Shown here piece by piece: positions 8,454 through 45,400 of a stretch of 64,000 nt of DNA. A program made the position numbers and the translations under genes. This DNA comes from Siphonodentalium dalli (Eukaryota; Mollusca; Scaphopoda; Gadilida; Siphonodentaliidae). The stretch's first letter is position 1, and each line of letters starts with the position of its first letter. The DNA is taken from the NCBI GenBank assembly GCA_032622095.1, contig CP136064.1, positions 277,287,614-277,351,613 on the forward strand, read 5' to 3'. The notes under the pieces were generated by a model. It made no database searches, had not been told where the DNA came from, and saw only the letters and a program-made list of their open reading frames with translations.

Positions 8454-9100
8454 ATAAAATATATTATATACCATGAACCCCCAGATCACATTATATAAAA
8501 TATATGCCATATTATATACCATGAACCCCCAGATCACATTATATAAAATATATGCTATATTATATACCATCGAACCCCCAGATTACATTATATAAAATAT
8601 ATGCCATAATATACACCATGAAACCCCAGATCGCATTATATAAACTATATGCCATATTATATACCATGAACCCCCAGATCACATTTATATAAACTATATG
8701 CCATATTATATATCATGAACCCCCAGATTACATTATATAAAATATATGCCATATTATATACCATGAACCCCCAGCTCACATTATATAAAATATGCCATAT
8801 TATATACCATGAACCCCCAGATCACATTATATAAACTACATGCCATATTATATACCATGAACCCCCAGATTACATTATATAAAATATATGCCATATTATA
8901 TACCAGGAACCCCCAGATTACATTATATAAAATATATGCCATATTATATACCATGAACCCCCAGATTACATTATATAAAATATATGCCATATTATATACC
9001 ATGAACCCCCAGATCACATTATTTAAAATATATGCCATATTATATACCATGAACCCCCAGATCACATATATAAAATATATGCCATATTATATACCATATG
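8454..9100 (+). repeat. 48-bp minisatellite, about 13 units
   Basis: Units of CCATGAACCCCCAGATCACA then TTATATAAAATATATGCCATATTATATA. It is a longer relative of the 42-bp unit at 4,753-5,485, with an added GCCATATTATATA. Open frames on both strands follow the 48-base period and are not genes. Confidence 0.9.
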
Positions 9101-9520
9101 AAAGAGGAAGCTCCAGAACATTGTATTATCAGCTTATCCAGTGTAATAAACTGAGGAGATGTTGTTTTTGTTGAGTTGCCAACGCGTTTTGTCATCCGGA
9201 TTGCAGTAAAAGGCAGTATTATTTTCAATGCAGGGGGAATAACTCTATATATTAAAGATAGAGTTCTTCCGCGTCCATTGAAAACGTTTGAATTCTGTTG
9301 CATTCTGGGATCTAAAGAGGGGAAGTCATTCTTTGATTTCAGCAGTTTTCTATTTCTCTGTGGGCATCTTCTGAGACACAGATATTTCAAATAGTGATGA
9401 ATTATAGTATTTTAATCATATTTTATGGCATATATTGTTATTAAAACCGTATATCAAGTCACTATAAACAAAAATAATCGGCGACCCGAAAATGAAGTGG
9501 GCCTTTCAGCTGGGCCTTTA

Positions 9521-10925
9521 AGTATTTGTGTTTGAATGCGTTGCATTCCATAATGAAGATAGGCATTTCAAATTCGACACACCGTTTGTCACGCATGAAA
9601 CACAGTCGATTTTCTATATAACAGTAGTATAGGTTGTTGTTGATATATATATATATATATATATATTATAATTGTCTGTCTGTTTCTATTTCTAATTACA
9701 TTTGGTTTTCCCACGCGTAATCTTAAAAACATCCGCCGCGAGAAATTTGTGATCGTGTATTAAAATGACATGACGTACGAATGACATATGGCTTAATTTT
9801 GTATTCATCTTTAAAGTTCGTAGTATGTTTTTCCCGGTCGGTCTATCGCTGTTGCATGTATCGTTGCGAAACAATTCCATGTGTTTTAATGTCAATCTGT
9901 TATAGTCTGTATCTTATTTCATGCACCCTGATCTGGTTTTGGCCGGCGATATTGACTTTAATCATGGACGTAAATGAGATATATACTATATATACATCGC
10001 TGCTTTAATGTTATAACGCGACAACATGAGTGTGTGTGTGCATGAGCCAGGTTGGAGGTAATTCACAATTCAGCGATTCTTTATTGCATGCGAATAAAAT
10101 ATTAACCCTTTTAACTCTTGACAGTTTAACCATGTGTATGTGGGTTTACTATATATAGCACAAACTATAGGTAATTTTTGAATTTTCACCAAAGTTATGG
10201 CCCTTTTTGCACTCAATTTTCCTGCACGGGTGATACTTTATTAAGTCTGAACTGAATTAAATTTGGTATGTGAATTTTCTTGCCCAAAATACAGATCAAA
10301 TTCGAATTTGGGTTCTGCCCGCTATTATTCTCCAAAGGTATGGCCCTCTGTCGTATTTTGTCACACCCTATAGCGATGGTCTTATTTTATTTAATGAGGG
10401 TCGTCGGTTATAAATCATTATGCATCCTGAGACACCGAGCTGTCCGTATTCATTTGAGCATTAATTAGATAAAATCAGAATGAATTGTAACTGACAAAAC
10501 TCTTAAATAAAAACATATATCATTTAATTGCTTATATATACGTGGTGGCAGCGGTCAGACCAGTGTAGCGAGGCGACTGAACTATGACAGTGTAGTTTGG
10601 AAGAAAACAAAGAGTCCCTGTTTTATTCAGCGAAAATTTATCAGTATACGCCCCGTGGTTCACAACTCGGAAATCGGGAGTAAATACTGAAGGTATATAT
10701 AACCAAGGCACTCACAACGGGTGAATGTGAAAAAATATATAAAAAATATCAAATTCGTTTCATAAAATCTTATATCCCAAAATACCTCGTTGGAGATCCT
10801 CTATACATGTAATCCTATATAAGAATGGCCTGCTTTGCCTCGCCTGTCCAGTTTTGGGGTTTCATGATTGTTCTTAATGAACCTCTTACATCCCTTATTT
10901 TTAGCAATTAGCTGCAGCACTTGAC
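9521..10925. other. GIMAP intron 1, single-copy part
   Basis: AT-rich intron sequence with a short TA dinucleotide run at about 9,640-9,665. No coding exon or transposon ends were recognised. Confidence 0.5.
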
Positions 10926-34200: not shown

Positions 34201-37200
34201 TGTCACACTTTCTTCTAAAATGTTTCTACATGGGGCGATAGAATATGTTATGTAAAATATATATCTCACCCTATACAGTAATTGCAGAAGTAGAATCGTG
34301 CATATTTGGAGGTAGGGTAGGTTATGTAACATATATCTCACACTAGATTAGGTATATGAGAAAGTTAATTCTCCAGGAAAAACACCAGTAAAAAACTAAT
34401 TATTAAAAACTTTTTATTATATATCTCACAATATCCAATAATTGCAGTAGAAGAATCGTGAATATTTGGAGGTAGGGTAGGTTATGTAACATATAAATAT
34501 CACCCTATCCAGTAATTGCAGTGGTAGAATCGTGAATATTTGGAGGTAGGGTAGGTTATGCGACAAATATATCACCCTATCCAGTAATTACAGTGGTAGA
34601 ATCATACCTATTTGGAGGTAGGGTATGTTATGCATATTTGGAGGTAGGGTAGAGAAGAATAGGGGGCTCGTTAGAGTCACATCTAAAAATAGAATCTTTG
34701 GGGTCTAAAATTGGTTGTACTAAAATATTCCTAAAATATCAAAAACCCAAAAAAAAAATTTCAAAACTTCAAAAATTTATTTTGTTCCAAAAAATTTCAA
34801 AAACCCTAAAATTAATTTTTTCCACAAAAAAATTCCAAACTTCCAAATTATCAAAAAAAGTAAAAATTTCAAAACCCTCAAAATTATTTCTCTAAAAAAA
34901 AGTTTAAATAAAAAATTTATAACGAGTTTTTCGGTTTCTGATAATCTCGATATTAAAAAATATCGAATGTTAAATTATTTGCTCGTAATATCTTTCGTTA
35001 TTTTTTTGTTCAAATATTTTTCATGAATTTATTAATCGATGTTTAGAAATAGCTTTATTGGACATTGTGACCAACGGTATGAATGCATACATTCCAGTGT
35101 TTAACGGACGCAGTTCATATAATTGTCATACCTGAAAATAGACACCATTACTTTTTACATAAATAATAAAGAGCGTTTATTCTTTACTTATCTCTATATG
35201 AAGTTATTGAGTATATGACAGGCGTGTATTTTCGTCAATTATTGGAAGTATTGAAATGTACTATGTTGAATTACTAACGGTCGAAAATGGTAAGGCGAAA
35301 TTACAACCCTCCAGAATGAATTGTCATATTGAATGAATGATGATTTAATCTCAGCCATTTTTACATGGAACATGAGCGATGTACACTCAATCACACACGC
35401 CACATTGGTGTTAACAATGTGTCTTTCACACCTTTGCTTTACCAAATGAATTCTATTATTTCCCCGGTCACAGCTATATGGTATTCAGAAAACAAATCGA
35501 TTTAATGTCAGAACAAACGGGGTTAGTATCAATTAAGGTTGATAAACTGTGTCATTCACACCATAATTAGTTAGCCAAAAACATGCATACATATTACGTC
35601 AGGTCGTGAGACACTCAATTATGCAAATTGCTTTGATGACATTGTTATAACAACATTACGTAATAACCCCTTATCACTCCAGTCACACTTACGATCATTT
35701 TGTATGCCGAAAACTCCAGGTAGCACCGATGATGTAACATTATATCACTGCTATTGTGCCAATGATAGGTTCAGACATGTTCCATGTTTAGAAAATACAT
35801 AATGTGCAGGTTAAGCCACAACAACAACAACAACAACAACAACAACATCCTGCTTTCATGATCCAATGGCCAATGTCCATGAAGATTTTATTTCCGATGC
35901 AAGTCATATTTCCGACTAACTCCTGAAAAGTTACCTATAATTCTGCTGTGGTTAAGCAGTCCATTATTTAGGGCATACCTGTATGTAGGCCTACCAGTGG
36001 ATGAATAGTCTGCCGGAGAAGTACTGTGTAGACAGGTCTTGTCGGTAAGAGAGTCAGCCGAGAAATGAAGGCTCGGCTATTAAAACATAGTAATGCGATA
36101 GCGAACATCAAACGAGTCTGCGCACGCATATCTGTCAAAGGATACAATGGCAGTCATTGGTCAATTTATCCCCGGTGTCAGCTCAGTACAATAGCAGTCA
36201 TTGGTCAATTTATCCCCGGTGTCAGCTCAGTACACAATCGACACGAAGCCGGAGGTCATAATTACTCTTACGAATGAAGAGCGTTGAACATATACGAAAT
36301 TATTACACGAATGAACTGAAATTTATATTTCACATCTTACCAACAACAGATACAGACATGGTCATAGTGTTATATTATCTTACATGTACCCATGCTATGA
36401 CATACTTAAAGGGGGATAATGCACACACGGAGTGTGGAATGTTAAAGTGACACGAGGTAAGGGACGTTATGTAATATTGGTGTGTGAATATTAAAGGAGC
36501 ATTCTCGCTATACAAACCCCCCTCCCCACTTATAGATATATAACGAAGACGAGAATAACATGTTGATGAAGTTTATTGAAATTTAATCATTGTCTGAATC
36601 TTCGACCGTTAGATTTACTGCTAAGAGTTTCTTGAATTTTCTCATCGCTTCATCTGCAGCCCATTCATTATTATATCCGCGTTTGGTCAGTTTGACCATT
36701 TTCTTCATGATCGTGTTATGTATGGGTGATGTTTTCAATCGATACTGGTATTCTATTAATCGTCTATAACTTTTGAGAAACAGAACAAAATCTGTGTCGA
36801 TGGTATCCTCTTTTCCCGACATGCTCTCATCTCCCGAAATGCTCTCTTCTTCTTTCACATCATTGGTGACGCGTTTCATCATACTTTTGAATGTGTCCAT
36901 CTCGTTGACACATCGCGCAGCTTTCTTAAGACCGAATACCGTTCTACTACCGACGACATTACCATCTTTTGAATCTGATAGCGTTCCCCGTTCATCTTCA
37001 TCTGTATCTTCTCCGAAGAGAGTTGTTTTTGTCTCGGACATAGCTCCGTGTTCATCCGGATCCTCAGTTAATTTTCGTTTTAACTTATTTTCTTGACACC
37101 AGTGTTTTACGTGTCTCTGAACATCATAATGATCTGCGAACAAAAGCCCGCATTCATTACAAGGGTACGACATGTCTTCTTGAATGTCTCTGTTTTGATG

Positions 37201-38128
37201 GTTCTTCTTATTAATTTCATCGAGCTCACCAGGTGGCCGTATGTCGTTAGTATAGTCATTATGTTGACCCTGGGGCGCAATATAATTATATGTTATGCCC
37301 TTCTGCTGACCGGGGAGTTCTCTGTCATCGTATTTCATCGCATTCTGTTGACCCTGGGTCTCAGTGTCTTTTGTATGTTTTTTCATCCCATTCTGTTCAT
37401 CTGGGTGTTCTCTGTCTTTTTGGAGATTATATTTCATGCCATTCCATTCACCCCTATGTTGGTTCGTGTCCTCTTTTAGTACATTCTGTCGCAGACGTAA
37501 TGCGTCCGGTGTTGCGGCTTTTAAATCCACCAGTAGGTAACCGTACGGTTCACTCGTCGCTTCCGAAAACTCTCGAACCATACGCTGAGGACATTCAGGA
37601 TACATCTGTCTTGATAATGTTGAAATTAATCCCTTGTCGATTGGGTTATTGAACAATACCAAATATTGACAATTTCGTCGTTGCGTTGGATCTTTGTTGT
37701 AGTAGAAATTCTGGTTCAAACTTATCAAAGATAAGTTCAAATGGTGACTTCCTTCGGAATGCAAATCATTAACTCTCTGGTCTTTTGATGAAGTTTGCAT
37801 CAAGTCATCGAGTATAACTAGATTTTTATACCGGGGGTTGATAAGCGAATCCAAGTTTGCTGGTATTCCTCGTATAAAGTTGACCTGAGGGGTGACGGTA
37901 TACTTTAATTCGTCATATAGGGGCTGCCAATATTTATAAAACCATATTATTCTGTCAGGTGCGGGTGATATTTTTGAGGCAGACTTTTGTAGTAAGGTTT
38001 TCACGAAGTATGTCTTACCACAAGATGTCGGTCCACTTACACATGCCGTGAATGGATGCTTGAAAATAAAATCTTCATGGACATTGGCCATTGGATCATC
38101 AAAGCAGGATGTTATGTCGCTTGGTGGC

Positions 38129-38189
<61 letters not shown>

Positions 38190-38200
38190 GGTGATGATAC

Positions 38201-38233
<33 letters not shown>

Positions 38234-38681
38234 GGCTGATGATACTGTTGTTGTTGCTGTTGTTGTTGTTGTTCTGAAGGCGTGTGTTTAACTTTGATAT
38301 GACGCTTCAAACTATCTTGCCAAGCATAGACACTTAAGCACTCTTCACATTGATACTTCATTTAACTAGTTCAGGCTGTCGTTCACAACGTCTCTTAGTG
38401 TTGTTTGTACTGGATACAAATTTATCACATTAGCTACAATACAACCTACCTATCCAAATGTCAATGCAATTATGAGTGATTTCAATATGAACACTCTATT
38501 ATATAGATATGTGTAACCTGGTGACTGACATGATGATACAGTTATGCACTAAATAAAGGACTGCTTAACCACAGCAGAATTATAGGTAACTTTTCAGGAG
38601 TTAGTCGGAAATATGGCTTGTTGCCATTCATCGGAAAGCTCTCGCCGCCGGCGGATGTTGTTGGCGGCGGCATTGCGGTGG

Positions 38682-38720
<39 letters not shown>

Positions 38721-38825
38721 GACGCCGGCGGCGGCGGCGGCATTGCAGTATTTTACTGCGGGGGTCCGCCGGCGGCGGACCCCGGCGGCGGCGGCGGCAC
38801 CGCCGCCGCAGTAAAATACCGCAAT

Positions 38826-38859
<34 letters not shown>

Positions 38860-38861
38860 TC

Positions 38862-38900
<39 letters not shown>

Positions 38901-39348
38901 CCACCGCAATGCCGCCGCCAACAACATCCGCCGGCGGCGAGAGCTTTCCGATGAATGGCAACAAGCCATATTTCCGACTAACTCCTGAAAAGTTACCTAT
39001 AATTCTGCTGTGGTTAAGCAGTCCTTTATTTAGTGCATAACTGTATCATCATGTCAGTCACCAGGTTACACATATCTATATAATAGAGTGTTCATATTGA
39101 AATCACTCATAATTGCATTGACATTTGGATAGGTAGGTTGTATTGTAGCTAATGTGATAAATTTGTATCCAGTACAAACAACACTAAGAGACGTTGTGAA
39201 CGACAGCCTGAACTAGTTAAATGAAGTATCAATGTGAAGAGTGCTTAAGTGTCTATGCTTGGCAAGATAGTTTGAAGCGTCATATCAAAGTTAAACACAC
39301 GCCTTCAGAACAACAACAACAACAGCAACAACAACAGTATCATCAGCC

Positions 39349-39381
<33 letters not shown>

Positions 39382-39395
39382 GTATCATCACCCCC

Positions 39396-39441
<46 letters not shown>

Positions 39442-42400
39442 GCCACCAAGCGACATAACATCCTGCTTTGATGATCCAATGGCCAATGTCCATGAAGATT
39501 TTATTTTCAAGCATCCATTCACGGCATGTGTAAGTGGACCGACATCTTGTGGTAAGACATACTTCGTGAAAACCTTACTACAAAAGTCTGCCTCAAAAAT
39601 ATCACCCGCACCTGACAGAATAATATGGTTTTATAAATATTGGCAGCCCCTATATGACGAATTAAAGTATACCGTCACCCCTCAGGTCAACTTTATACGA
39701 GGAATACCAGCAAACTTGGATTCGCTTATCAACCCCCGGTATAAAAATCTAGTTATACTCGATGACTTGATGCAAACTTCATCAAAAGACCAGAGAGTTA
39801 ATGATTTGCATTCCGAAGGAAGTCACCATTTGAACTTATCTTTGATAAGTTTGAACCAGAATTTCTACTACAACAAAGATCCAACGCAACGACGAAATTG
39901 TCAATATTTGGTATTGTTCAATAACCCAATCGACAAGGGATTAATTTCAACATTATCAAGACAGATGTATCCTGAATGTCCTCAGCGTATGGTTCGAGAG
40001 TTTTCGGAAGCGACGAGTGAACCGTACGGTTACCTACTGGTGGATTTAAAAGCCGCAACACCGGACGCATTACGTCTGCGACAGAATGTACTAAAAGAGG
40101 ACACGAACCAACATAGGGGTGAATGGAATGGCATGAAATATAATCTCCAAAAAGACAGAGAACACCCAGATGAACAGAATGGGATGAAAAAACATACAAA
40201 AGACACTGAGACCCAGGGTCAACAGAATGCGATGAAATACGATGACAGAGAACTCCCCGGTCAGCAGAAGGGCATAACATATAATTATATTGCGCCCCAG
40301 GGTCAACATAATGACTATACTAACGACATACGGCCACCTGGTGAGCTCGATGAAATTAATAAGAAGAACCATCAAAACAGAGACATTCAAGAAGACATGT
40401 CGTACCCTTGTAATGAATGCGGGCTTTTGTTCGCAGATCATTATGATGTTCAGAGACACGTAAAAAACTGGTGTCAAGAAAATAAGTTAAAACGAAAATT
40501 AACTGAGGATCCGGATGAACACGGAGCTATGTCCGAGACAAAAACAACTCTCTTCGGAGAAGATACAGATGAAGATGAACGGGGAACGCTATCAGATTCA
40601 AAAGATGGTAATGTCGTCGGTAGTAGAACGGTATTCGGTCTTAAGAAAGCTGCGCGATGTGTCAACGAGATGGACACATTCAAAAGTATGATGAAACGCG
40701 TCACCAATGATGTGAAAGAAGAAGAGAGCATTTCGGGAGATGAGAGCATGTCGGGAAAAGAGGATACCATCGACACAGATTTTGTTCTGTTTCTCAAAAG
40801 TTATAGACGATTAATAGAATACCAGTATCGATTGAAAACATCACCCATACATAACACGATCATGAAGAAAATGGTCAAACTGACCAAACGCGGATATAAT
40901 AATGAATGGGCTGCAGATGAAGCGATGAGAAAATTCAAGAAACTCTTGGCAGTAAATCTAACGGTCGAAGATTCAGACAATGATTAAATTTCAATAAACT
41001 TCATCAACATGTTATTCTCGTCTTCGTTATATATCTATAAGTGGGGAGGGGGGTTTGTATAGCGAGAATGCTCCTTTAATATTCACACACCAATATTACA
41101 TAACGTCCCTTACCTCGTGTCACTTTAACATTCCACACTCCGTGTGTGCATTATCCCCCTTTAAGTATGTCATAGCATGGGTACATGTAAGATAATATAA
41201 CACTATGACCATGTCTGTATCTGTTGTTGGTAAGATGTGAAATATAAATTTCAGTTCATTCGTGTAATAATTTCGTATATGTTCAACGCTCTTCATTCGT
41301 AAGAGTAATTATGACCTCCGGCTTCGTGTCGATTGTGTACTGAGCTGACACCGGGGATAAATTGACCAATGACTGCTATTGTACTGAGCTGACACCGGGG
41401 ATAAATTGACCAATGACTGCCATTGTATCCTTTGACAGATATGCGTGCGCAGACTCGTTTGATGTTCGCTATCGCATTACTATGTTTTAATAGCCGAGCC
41501 TTCATTTCTCGGCTGACTCTCTTACCGACAAGACCTGTCTACACAGTACTTCTCCGGCAGACTATTCATCCACTGGTAGGCCTACATACAGGTATGCCCT
41601 AAATAATGGACTGCTTAACCACAGCAGAATTATAGGTAACTTTTCAGGAGTTAGTCGGAAATATGACTTGCATCGGAAATAAAATCTTCATGGACATTGG
41701 CCATTGGATCATGAAAGCAGGATGTTGTTGTTGTTGTTGTTGTTGTTGTTGTGGCTTAACCTGCACATTATGTATTTTCTAAACATGGAACATGTCTGAA
41801 CCTATCATTGGCACAATAGCAGTGATATAATGTTACATCATCGGTGCTACCTGGAGTTTTCGGCATACAAAATGATCGTAAGTGTGACTGGAGTGATAAG
41901 GGGTTATTACGTAATGTTGTTATAACAATGTCATCAAAGCAATTTGCATAATTGAGTGTCTCACGACCTGACGTAATATGTATGCATGTTTTTGGCTAAC
42001 TAATTATGGTGTGAATGACACAGTTTATCAACCTTAATTGATACTAACCCCGTTTGTTCTGACATTAAATCGATTTGTTTTCTGAATACCATATAGCTGT
42101 GACCGGGGAAATAATAGAATTCATTTGGTAAAGCAAAGGTGTGAAAGACACATTGTTAACACCAATGTGGCGTGTGTGATTGAGTGTACATCGCTCATGT
42201 TCCATGTAAAAATGGCTGAGATTAAATCATCATTCATTCAATATGACAATTCATTCTGGAGGGTTGTAATTTCGCCTTACCATTTTCGACCGTTAGTAAT
42301 TCAACATAGTACATTTCAATACTTCCAATAATTGACGAAAATACACGCCTGTCATATACTCAATAACTTCATATAGAGATAAGTAAAGAATAAACGCTCT

Positions 42401-45400
42401 TTATTATTTATGTAAAAAGTAATGGTGTCTATTTTCAGGTATGACAATTATATGAACTGCGTCCGTTAAACACTGGAATGTATGCATTCATACCGTTGGT
42501 CACAATGTCCAATAAAGCTATTTCTAAACATCGATTAATAAATTCATGAAAAATATTTGAACAAAAAAATAACGAAAGATATTACGAGCAAATAATTTAA
42601 CATTCGATATTTTTTAATATCGAGATTATCAGAAACCGAAAAAACTCGTTATAAATTTTTTATTTAAACTTTTTTTTAGAGAAATAATTTTGAGGGTTTT
42701 GAAATTTTTTCTTTTTTTGATAATTTGGAAGTTTGGAATTTTTTTGTGGAAAAAATTAATTTTAGGGTTTTTGAAATTTTTTGGAACAAAATAAATTTTT
42801 GAAGTTTTGAAATTTTTTTTTTGGGTTTTTGATATTTTAGGAATATTTTAGTACAACCAATTTTAGACCCCAAAGATTCTATTTTTAGATGTGACTCTAA
42901 CGAGCCCCCTATTCTTCTGGGTAGGTTATGTAACATATACATATCACCCTATCCAGTAATTGCAGTGGTAGAATCGTGAATATTTTGAGGTAGGGTAGGT
43001 TATGTAACATATATCTCTCACCCTTTCCAGTAATTGCAGTAGAAGAATCGTGAATATTTGGACGAAGGACAATTCGCAAATCCGCAGCCGACTCTCGTAG
43101 CACTGTGTCCAACCACCTGAAAGACACAAAACATTCAAACATTCGAAGCACTGTGTGTGAACTGAAGCGAACTGAAGGTACATGCACATTGTGGGTTCAG
43201 TCTCTATCACATATATATATATATAGACTATCCGGTTTATAAAATAAACATAGTTGGTGAATAATATGACCATACGCAAGCCTAATTAACGAACCAAAGC
43301 TAAACAATCAAATAGGGGATTCTTAATGTAGTGTTTAAAACAATTCCTGTCAAACTCACTTTATAGATTCCCACCAAATAAGATTCACATGCACTGAAGG
43401 CTTATGTTTGGTGGGGTAATTATAAATAGTTATATTTGTTGTCGAGAGTGCATTGAACTGAAACTAACCATTATATTACTTGGCGTGCTGGGGGAGCTTT
43501 CCGCTTCAGTTACTAGGGATATTCATTTCATTCAAAACAAGTCATTATGTCGATTTCAACGATAGTCGACAAACAACGTCATCGTGTAACTTTCACCATT
43601 GACCGAATTCGCGTGGATCTGAATTTATCTTCTGCTTTGTTCATAAGTATGTGTTTCCATTCTATTCAAGAACATACGATATATATGGATTATCAAATGC
43701 ATGTAAGTATGCAGACTTATAACAATAAAATCCATATTAAATATTATCTTATTTCCTTTCGCACGGTAAAGTCTCTACAGAACCATGCAGTATTGATCAA
43801 CTGATGTGCATCAGTTGGAAAATAAAGCGTTGAGATACACGTAGATCGTGTTGAGTTTTCTGGTGATTTTAGTTTATTTTAAAAAAATGTTGCACGTCGA
43901 CTGATTTGGGTTGGCCTCTTGACAGCCGATTACGACATTAATGCTTTAAGCCCACCGATCTACTGTGAAAGTTCGCGCTCGCGAAATTCAAAACAACAGC
44001 GTCGTATTAGATAATAATTGGTGACGTCACAAAATCAGATATAGTCTATATACGACCCAAAGCGTCCGGCTTTGGTTCGTTATAAAGAGAATAAGCTCAG
44101 AATATACTTTTCGGCGAATTGCGCGATTTGACCTTGAATTGTCCATTTTGAAGGTCAAGGTCAGGTGGGGTAACGATTCGTCCGGGCTGTTTCCCCTCTG
44201 CTTTTCGGCGAATTGCGCGATTTAACAAAAGTAACCTTATGTATGGTGGACCCGACTTCGTGCCTTTCCCCTCTGCTTTTCGGCCAATTGCGTGGTTTGA
44301 CCTTGAATTGTCCATTTTGAAGGTCAAGGTCAGGTGGGGTCACGATTTGACCCGTCCAAAACACTGCCCGGACAAAAGTACCCTACAAAAGTACCCGTCG
44401 ATATCCATCCGGTTTTACCCGATTTGACCTCGAATTGATCATTTTGAAGGTCAAGATCAGGTCGGGGTCACGACTCGACCCGTCTAAAACACCCAGTGGA
44501 CAAAAGTAACCCCACGTATCAAATTCGTCGAAATCGCATCAAAATTCGCGATTTGACCTTGAATTGACCAGATTTCAAGGTCAATGTCACGTCGCACGGG
44601 CAAACGAATAGGCTTACGACACTCCCCATACGAACGTATCCCCAGACACTAATTTTCATCGAAATCCCGTGATACTCGGGCGTTCGACCTTGAAATTATC
44701 CGATGTCAAGGTCACGTCGCACGGGAAAATTAACAGGCCCATGCCAGTCCCCGGCCGAAAGTATCCCACATACAAAGTTTTATCGAAATCGGTTCGCCCG
44801 TTTTCGAGTCCATCGCGAACAGACAGACAGACAGACACACACAGATCTCCCAAAATATATAATAGATATACCTACAGTTTTTGTTTGAATACCGAAATAT
44901 CTCATGCATGAGTGTCTGGAAAGAAATATCGATTTTTTACGAGCGGCTGCAAACAAAAACTCGCGCATAGAAATGAAACAAGGAATCGAAACTAACAAGT
45001 CTCCGTGTCACCACAAATGACATTTTGAAACTCTCTTCGAAATACATATATCTGGATGCGAACAACTTTACAAATGGTAAAAGTTTTAGAAATCACTCGG
45101 CGGCCTCAAACATTGACTTTAAAGGGAAAGCTCACAGAAACCAGCTTTCGTGTTGGTGAAAAAAAAACCGTTAGTTAACTGATTGCTTTCTTATGAAATA
45201 AAACTGCCCTTCGAGACTATATACTATTATTTTATTCTTGAAGAAATTATCATAATTTGATAAATGTTATTTCTAAATTATAACCTACAACGAAGGCCGC
45301 CCGTCCCTTTATGTGTGTGAACGTGTATACAGTGCACGTGTGCTGTACTAAAAAAAAACACGTTCATATCGTCAGTGGCTGTGTTTGCTCCATGACCTTT

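What the first reader, a model, noticed from the sequence alone, without database searches (positions are those of the whole stretch)
34653..42918. An 8.3-kb near-perfect palindrome that inserted as a palindrome (Polinton-like, 6-bp TSD)
Seen: both arms mirror each other from AGAAGAATAGGG at 34,653 to the exact inverse at 42,918, and GGGTAG flanks both sides. Established: Polintons make 6-bp target duplications and encode A32-like ATPases, but they are normally 15-20 kb with polymerase B and integrase, which this lacks. Inference: a head-to-head dimer of one Polinton end plus the ATPase gene was integrated as a unit by an integrase supplied in trans. Such palindromes could arise by fold-back during protein-primed replication. 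An ATPase-only element with two identical ends would be a minimal, satellite-like derivative.
Basis: partly seen in the sequence, partly recalled or inferred. Interest (0 to 1): 0.95.

Follow-up and report, generated by a model that had tools for sequence, protein, structure and literature searches.

The report
Palindromic Polinton satellite with hairpin centre
The 8.3-kb mirror-image DNA block is real and belongs to a large family of palindromic mobile elements in this 2.2-Gb genome (dozens shown, hundreds estimated); they share their ends with virus-like Polinton transposons, usually carry a packaging-motor-like gene in each half, and seem to be copied through a hairpin.

Summary
Window 34,653-42,918 is an 8,266-bp palindrome (3 substitutions in 3,299 sites compared) flanked by a 6-bp duplication, GGGTAG. 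It is not unique and very unlikely to be an assembly fold-back. Counting the window, 13 fully read copies, 19 further midpoints and 12 sampled core sites all show inverted symmetry about a centre (two only partly); one other copy has a single arm. Perfect 6-bp duplications flank 23 of 24 copies checked. The end motif occurs 1,267 times genome-wide (control 0), so hundreds of copies is an estimate. Of 14 elements of 15-19 kb examined, 12 are non-palindromic Polintons with the same 1.16-kb ends, one is a fold-back dimer of the Polinton's polymerase half, one a satellite with an insert. The palindromes carry a zinc-finger A32-like ATPase per arm, 31% identical to the Polinton's own. Arms within an element differ by 0.09% on average, arms of different elements by 3.8%, so arms are re-copied along each lineage. 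In 21 of 32 centres a T-shaped (AAV-ITR-like) hairpin core is intact. Best reading: trans-mobilised Polinton satellites propagated as palindromes, probably through hairpin intermediates. The replication step is inferred, not shown.

The parts
34647..34652 (.). left target-site duplication GGGTAG
   Evidence: empty-site comparison
42919..42924 (.). right target-site duplication GGGTAG
34653..42918 (.). whole palindromic satellite element, 8,266 bp
34653..35811 (+). left terminal repeat (1,159 bp) shared with full-length Polintons
   Evidence: 94.6-98.1% identity to the ends of L022, L025, L031, L005 and the PolB dimer
41760..42918 (-). right terminal repeat, inverse of the left
36583..38361 (-). 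ATPase gene, left arm, 592 aa: C2H2 finger, polyQ, Pox_A32 core (GPTSCGKT and LDDLM motifs), second C2H2 finger
39221..40987 (+). ATPase gene, right arm, 588 aa, mirror copy
38700..38870 (.). G+C-rich centre that folds into one long stem with side branches (DNA fold -93.1 kcal/mol, z -12.1; in this length three branches)
38749..38818 (.). 70-nt core TATTTTACTGC-B-C-GCAGTAAAATA (B hairpin about 38760-38783, C hairpin about 38784-38807); 38735-38832 folds as a T
   Evidence: same core in other copies in either orientation

Best explanation
A non-autonomous, palindromic satellite of a Polinton (Maverick). Shown: two identical Polinton-type ends, two mirror copies of an ATPase gene, a T-shaped hairpin at the centre, precise insertion with a 6-bp duplication, many sister copies, and full-length Polintons with the same ends in the same genome. 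Inferred: the Polinton's protein-primed polymerase starts at both identical ends and its integrase inserts the product. A displaced single strand of a palindrome folds on itself into a 4.1-kb duplex closed by the T-shaped loop; copying that hairpin from its open end round the loop restores an 8.3-kb palindrome with identical arms. The hairpin copying step thus keeps the element palindromic and homogenises its arms in every cycle. The extra ATPase may act in packaging or in competition with the helper; that part is a guess.
For: (1) Palindromy is the state of the family: 13 of 13 fully read 8-9-kb copies, window included; of 19 further midpoints (19 of the 22 other 7-10-kb pairs), 17 are symmetric over at least 729 of 801 bp, one over 479 bp, one as 82-bp arms around a spacer of about 590 bp; 12 of 12 core sites sampled from 31 listed on C1, eleven over at least 767 bp and one over 321 bp. 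(2) Integrated as units: perfect 6-bp duplications in 12 of 13 plus 2 of 2 more and in 9 of 9 C1 pairs that contain a core. (3) Arms are re-copied: within-element divergence mean 0.09%, between elements mean 3.8%, minimum 0.61%; the two arms are sisters in 13 of 13. The terminal 1.1 kb differs by a median 0.09% in 15 palindromes (PolB dimer included) against 0.55% (0.18-9.5%) in 12 Polintons, one-sided Mann-Whitney P 3.9e-5. (4) Fold-back copying occurs in this family: C3:286440216-286455842 is a palindrome of the Polinton's PolB half, arms 99.7% identical over 5.2 kb, with a loop of about 300 nt colinear with the full-length element and the duplication GATCTA. (5) Helper genes present: PolB, rve+chromo integrase, adenain-like protease (weak), ATPase; perfect duplications in 12 of 12 Polintons. 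(6) Core words plus B hairpin in 21 of 32 copies not chosen by the core, over types A, B and C; T fold in six of six copies tried, all with an intact core. (7) ATPase core pooled pN/pS 0.108; 9 of 13 elements keep a long ORF in both arms.
Against: Chromosomal gene conversion between arms would also keep them alike. The core is not universal: words plus B are missing in 11 of 32 copies, and of 12 sites chosen by the B hairpin alone only 4 have the flanking words exactly; so the T shape cannot be strictly required. Low fold energies are expected of any inverted repeat, and the shuffles do not control for that. The window's own centre folds with three branches, not a T, when 171 nt are given. The junction of the C3 dimer shows no exact microhomology to the Polinton copy compared. 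The low pN/pS rests on few changes among related, recombining copies. One copy, L023, has a single arm.
Confidence: 0.7

Rival explanations
1. The palindromes are inherited as ordinary long-inverted-repeat transposons (Foldback-like) and the arms are kept alike after insertion by chromosomal gene conversion between them.
For: Arms 4 kb long and adjacent are good conversion partners; defects are sometimes shared by both arms (L011 304 and 297 aa, L015 500 and 500 aa).
Against: Some gene-breaking changes lie in one arm only (L014 600 against 405 aa, L017 500 against 583 aa). The C3 PolB dimer looks like direct fold-back copying. Polinton ends in the same genome are less alike, but they are about 14 kb apart, which weakens that control.
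Confidence: 0.17
2. Each palindrome was made afresh by fold-back of a non-palindromic element that carries one ATPase arm.
For: Fold-back of this sort did happen for the PolB half.
Against: No non-palindromic donor was seen: 12 of the 14 elements of 15-19 kb examined have PolB at one end and the integrase/ATPase half at the other, none of the 12 has the satellite arm at an end. The same complex core lies at the centre in types A, B and C. L023 has one arm but still the whole core and the start of the other arm, so it looks like a truncated palindrome. The search is not exhaustive: of 1,259 ATPase candidates 40 were listed, 22 of them in inverted pairs about 2 kb apart and 18 unpaired in the capped list, of which 4 are known palindromes.
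Confidence: 0.08
3. Assembly fold-back artefact.
For: Long palindromes are a known assembly error (general knowledge).
Against: Different flanks with matching 6-bp duplications at both ends in 23 of 24 copies checked; most arms carry private differences.
Confidence: 0.01
4. Decaying Polinton-type deletion derivatives with no function of their own; the ATPase is a passenger.
For: Some copies have short ATPase ORFs in both arms and yet inserted recently (L011); L024 is a palindrome without the ATPase core.
Against: ATPase core pooled pN/pS 0.108 while the C-terminal part is 0.615; high copy number.
Confidence: 0.15

Closest known systems
Polinton / Maverick elements (PMC8097293, passages read)
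   Same: 6-bp target-site duplication, terminal inverted repeats, short tandem repeat at the very end (AGAAGA here; (AG)3 or (AGT)2 reported), A32-like ATPase; the helper here has PolB, integrase, protease-like and ATPase genes.
   Different: The satellite is about 8.3 kb, a complete palindrome, and only an ATPase gene, with zinc fingers, was found in it.
Hairpin plasmid from protein-primed yeast linear plasmids (Kikuchi et al. 1985 EMBO J; seen only as cited in a passage and the reference list of PMC4443254; full text not held; content recalled)
   Same: Recalled: a hairpin monomer and its palindromic dimer derived from a terminal-protein plasmid; would work alike.
   Different: Cytoplasmic yeast plasmid, not integrated; no T-shaped centre known to me.
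AAV / parvovirus inverted terminal repeat (recalled)
   Same: Stem with two side hairpins; a dimer junction with such a core between mirror arms.
   Different: Outer ends are of Polinton type; no sequence relation was tested.
Foldback and Galileo transposons (PMC4079207, PMC3573991, PMC4168063: search listing and abstract starts only)
   Same: Very long inverted repeats making up much of the element.
   Different: Galileo is filed with the P superfamily there; here the whole element including the gene is mirrored and ends are of Polinton type.
Palindrome class in pangenome insertions (PMC11202377, passages)
   Same: Names insertions whose inverted repeats fill over 90% of the sequence.
   Different: A structural class in a figure legend; in the passages seen it is not linked to Mavericks.

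Membership tests
Polinton/Maverick | 6-bp target-site duplication | tested here: met
   23 of 24 satellites, 12 of 12 Polintons, 1 of 1 PolB dimer
Polinton/Maverick | terminal inverted repeats starting with a short tandem repeat | tested here: met
   AGAAGA ends; 1,159-bp terminus shared with full-length copies
Polinton/Maverick | protein-primed DNA polymerase B in the element | tested here: not met
   no ORF of that size and no DNA similarity to the PolB half outside the terminal repeat; PolB present in the relatives
Polinton/Maverick | retroviral-type integrase in the element | tested here: not met
   no ORF of that size and no DNA similarity to L031 outside the terminal repeat; rve+chromo in L031
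Polinton/Maverick | A32-like packaging ATPase | tested here: met
   PF04665 E 1e-5; 31% identity over 206 aa to the Polinton ATPase, E 4e-29 for the single comparison
Polinton/Maverick | capsid genes | tested here: inconclusive
   no capsid-sized ORF besides the ATPase in the satellite; a 420-aa candidate in the helper (L031) had no Pfam or PHROGs match and its model was too poor to use
Non-autonomous (satellite) derivative of a Polinton | same ends as an autonomous element in the same genome, without its enzymes | tested here: met
   mobilisation in trans itself was not tested
AAV-like terminal hairpin | T-shaped fold with stem and two side arms | tested here: met
   six of six copies folded, all chosen with an intact core; prediction only; three branches in a longer window stretch
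AAV-like terminal hairpin | Rep protein and nicking site | tested here: inconclusive
   only the ATPase ORF was scanned with Pfam, with a weak RNA_helicase match (E 0.04, below cut-off) and no Rep match; nicking site not testable
Hairpin-plasmid type replication | hairpin monomer and palindromic dimer as free DNA | not testable with these tools
   needs DNA from the host
Foldback elements | 9-bp target-site duplication (recalled) | tested here: not met
   6-bp duplication

The most novel reading that the evidence does not exclude
A self-standing class of Polinton satellites with a two-form genome: a 4.1-kb hairpin with a protein-primed open end and an AAV-like T-shaped closed end, which turns into an 8.3-kb palindromic dimer at each replication and is integrated in that form. 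It swaps terminal repeats with its helper and uses its own packaging-type ATPase to compete for the helper's particles.
Probability: 0.35. Interest if true: 0.93.

Novelty: new variant of a known kind. Interest (0 to 1): 0.84.

Why it matters
Protein-primed replication of Polintons rests, as far as I recall, mainly on analogy. Many palindromes whose arms are re-copied in each lineage, beside a fold-back dimer of the polymerase half, are a genomic record of strand-displacement and fold-back copying and make the question testable in one host. A gene-bearing satellite of a Polinton would add a parasite level to these elements. Palindromes of this size in such numbers also matter for genome stability and for repeat annotation.

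Tried and rejected
Ungapped arm comparison misled because of indels; replaced by gapped alignment. Two orientations of the central core were considered as parvovirus-type flip/flop and rejected: reversing the whole palindrome gives the same two orientations. One-armed copy L023 was considered as a monomer insertion; no matching 6-bp duplication at its broken side, so it is read as a truncated palindrome. A microhomology at the PolB dimer junction suggested by a 6-nt BLAST overlap was not confirmed base by base. pN/pS on the whole ATPase (0.695) is blurred by swapped N-termini and polyQ; split. In one search L011 and L019 were dropped (ORF under 500 aa) and they are not either. The capsid-candidate model (mean pLDDT 29) was not used. 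In viral contigs single-protein scans gave no relative of the satellite ATPase, the capsid candidate or PolB. PDB and PHROGs gave nothing useful. Papers: nine searches listed 25 of 44, 20 of 33, 15 of 24, 20 of 25, 6 of 6, 25 of 38, 4 of 4, 12 of 24 and 7 of 7 papers; no title or abstract start names a palindromic Polinton. Beyond listings I saw only passages of PMC8097293, PMC4443254, PMC11202377 and PMC12368964. Subscription journals are mostly outside that library. After the first check I recounted the cores and refolded the window core; the claim 'most centres' became 21 of 32.
Full report
What is there. Window 34,653-42,918 is an 8,266-bp palindrome with GGGTAG on both sides. Aligned with its own reverse complement it gives 8,210 matches in 8,302 columns; outside repeats and the centre the arms differ by three substitutions and one single-base indel. 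It sits in a repeat of about 74 bp, and the flanks joined with one GGGTAG match a neighbouring unit across the junction. Each arm has a 1,159-bp terminal repeat and an ATPase gene that reads outward from the centre (592 and 588 aa: C2H2 finger, polyQ, Pox_A32 core, second C2H2 finger).

It is a family. A 1-kb terminal query gave 40 scored copies of 2,365 candidates, 34 of the 40 in inverted pairs. An end pattern with up to two mismatches found 65 forward and 66 reverse matches, none in the control; of 100 listed, 94 form 47 inverted pairs, 27 of 7-10 kb, 15 of 15-19 kb, 4 shorter and 1 of 11.4 kb, and 6 are unpaired. The general end AGAAGAATAGNNNNCTCGTT has 641 forward and 626 reverse exact matches, control 0. 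In the first 150 Mb of C1 (94 of the 100 listed ends) there are 44 pairs: 28 of 7-11.1 kb, 10 of 15-17.5 kb, 5 shorter, 1 of 13.5 kb, and 6 unpaired ends. 'Hundreds of copies' is an estimate from these counts.

The short class is palindromic. All 13 copies read in full are palindromes. Of 19 further midpoints (19 of the 22 other 7-10-kb pairs), 17 are symmetric over at least 729 of 801 bp, one over 479 bp, and one has 82-bp arms around a spacer of about 590 bp; the midpoint of a 5.3-kb element is not symmetric. Twelve core sites taken from the 31 listed on C1 are all central to an inverted repeat, eleven over at least 767 bp and one over 321 bp. In 13 of the 16 C1 pairs that contain a listed core it lies at 0.498-0.504 of the length; seven of 23 listed cores fall in no listed pair. 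Perfect 6-bp duplications: 12 of 13 full copies plus L018/L019 and L004/L003 and 9 of 9 C1 pairs with a core; the exception is L026 (4 of 6 bases). The 18-kb C2 element is a satellite palindrome that seems to have an insert in one arm. L023 has one arm, the core, and the start of the other arm.

The long class is mainly the helper. L022 with L031 is a 16.3-kb element: terminal repeat, 607-aa ORF, a 916-aa PolB frame, PC4- and TBP-like frames, then protease, capsid candidate, integrase and ATPase. Family matches were run on these or sister copies: PolB PF03175 E 1.7e-51 in the arm of the PolB dimer (L029); PC4 and TBP in L025; adenain-like protease E 6e-4, below the curated cut-off, and rve plus chromo integrase in L031; ATPase in L005; the ATPase frame of L031 itself is shorter (182 against 221 aa). 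The 420-aa capsid candidate has no match. Of the 15 pairs of this class, 12 have the PolB half at one end and the integrase/ATPase half at the other (ten from 551-bp pieces at both ends; L022/L031 and L005/L008), one is the PolB dimer, one is the satellite with an insert, and one (C8:54459356) was not examined. All 12 have perfect duplications.

The satellite is not just a Polinton end. Only the 1,159-bp terminal repeat is shared (94.6-98.1%), and it stops where the Polinton's own two ends stop matching. The satellite ATPase is 31% identical to the Polinton's over 206 aa (E 4e-29) and lies in the opposite direction. Some satellite ends are closest to a Polinton end after their own mate (L021 to the C4 Polinton, 1.5%, with the same CTGG terminal box), and the two ends of a Polinton often have different closest relatives, which suggests that ends are exchanged between helper and satellite.

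Arms are re-copied. In 3.3 kb the arms of 13 elements differ by 0-0.18% (mean 0.09%), arms of different elements by 0.61-10.2% (mean 3.8%); arms are sisters in 13 of 13, with weak support (0.551) for L016. With 1.1 kb of the ends only, 28 of 30 palindrome ends have their mate as closest relative; the exceptions are one end of L016 and one end of the PolB dimer. If a palindrome had formed once and been copied passively, its arms would differ as much as the elements do. So arms are homogenised along each lineage, by copying or by conversion. Ends of palindromes (n 15, median 0.09%) are more alike than ends of Polintons (n 12, median 0.55%, 0.18-9.5%), one-sided P 3.9e-5; age and distance between ends are not controlled in that test.

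A fold-back dimer. C3:286440216-286455842 is a palindrome of the PolB half: 5.2-kb stretches of its arms 99.7% identical, a centre of about 300 nt that is colinear with L022 as far as the PC4 gene and then turns back into a G+C-rich repeat, and the duplication GATCTA. No exact microhomology was found. Such a structure is expected if a growing strand folds back on itself.

The centre. Satellites of types A, B and C share a core in which TATTTTACTGC and GCAGTAAAATA enclose two small hairpins. Among the 32 copies not chosen by the core, words plus B hairpin are intact in 21 (9 of 13 and 12 of 19), and the B hairpin alone is present in 23; of 12 sites chosen by the B hairpin only 4 have the words exactly. 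Both orientations occur, six each among the 12 midpoints with words and B, as expected for a palindrome inserted either way. The core folds as a stem with two arms in six of six copies tried, all with an intact core (z -9.4 to -11.4); the longer window stretch folds with three branches (z -12.1). Any inverted repeat would give low z values. A 23-nt hairpin pattern has 335 forward and 336 reverse sites, control 0; the motif is nearly its own inverse, so this is about 336 sites.

The gene. The ATPase core has pooled pN/pS 0.108 over 16 copies and the C-terminal part 0.615; pairs are not independent and changes are few. Nine of 13 elements have a long ORF (566 aa or more) in both arms; L011 and L015 are shortened in both arms, L014 and L017 in one. 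L011 is a young palindrome with both copies short, and L024 is a palindrome in which no ATPase core was found, so the gene need not act in cis.

Mechanism. Shown: palindromic integration, recurrent homogenisation, a fold-back dimer of the helper, shared ends, helper genes. Inferred: protein-primed start at both ends by the helper polymerase, hairpin formation by the displaced strand, turn-around at the T-shaped loop, integration by the helper integrase. Guess: role of the ATPase. Rival with most weight: gene conversion in the chromosome.

Known or new. Ends and duplications are those of Polintons/Mavericks (PMC8097293, passages). A hairpin plasmid derived from protein-primed yeast plasmids is the nearest mechanistic parallel, but I saw it only as cited and recall the rest. 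In nine paper searches, whose lists were partly capped, no title or abstract start named a palindromic Polinton. The homologue database was off, so relatives elsewhere were searched only in viral contigs, without a hit. I rate it a new variant of a known kind.

Noticed in passing
L025:8420-9073 and 9085-9609; same-length ORFs at L022:8361-9014 and 9026-9550: The full-length Polinton encodes a TATA-binding protein (PF00352, E 3e-32) and a PC4-type coactivator (PF02229, E 7e-15) next to each other (ORFs).
   Followed up: partly
window 34663-34666 and mirror; C1 pairs: Bases 11-14 of the terminus vary among elements but agree at both ends in 43 of 44 C1 pairs (about 10% expected), also in three Polintons whose end repeats differ by 3-9.5% (and, for C5). 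Ends may have to match for integration.
   Followed up: partly
L014, L020, L021, L026, L027, L028 centres: Type-B centres contain an extra copy of terminal-repeat bases 28-234 at about 74-77% identity beside the core.
   Followed up: no
G000:C5:195010067-195027746 and C1:159746518-159773483: Three 5.3-kb elements with the same ends about 0.9-1 kb apart, and six same-strand ends about 5.4 kb apart: other small derivatives, perhaps tandem arrays; the one midpoint read is not palindromic.
   Followed up: no
window 1785, 1875, 16217, 16505, 26025, 26172, 46724, 46936, 61849, 61997, 62567: Another dispersed repeat (GCCAATGCATTCTCTTATATATGCGAG...), partly in close inverted pairs.
   Followed up: no
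G000:C7:204076162-204080397 (L023): One-armed satellite with the whole central core; looks like a truncated palindrome without a matching duplication.
   Followed up: partly
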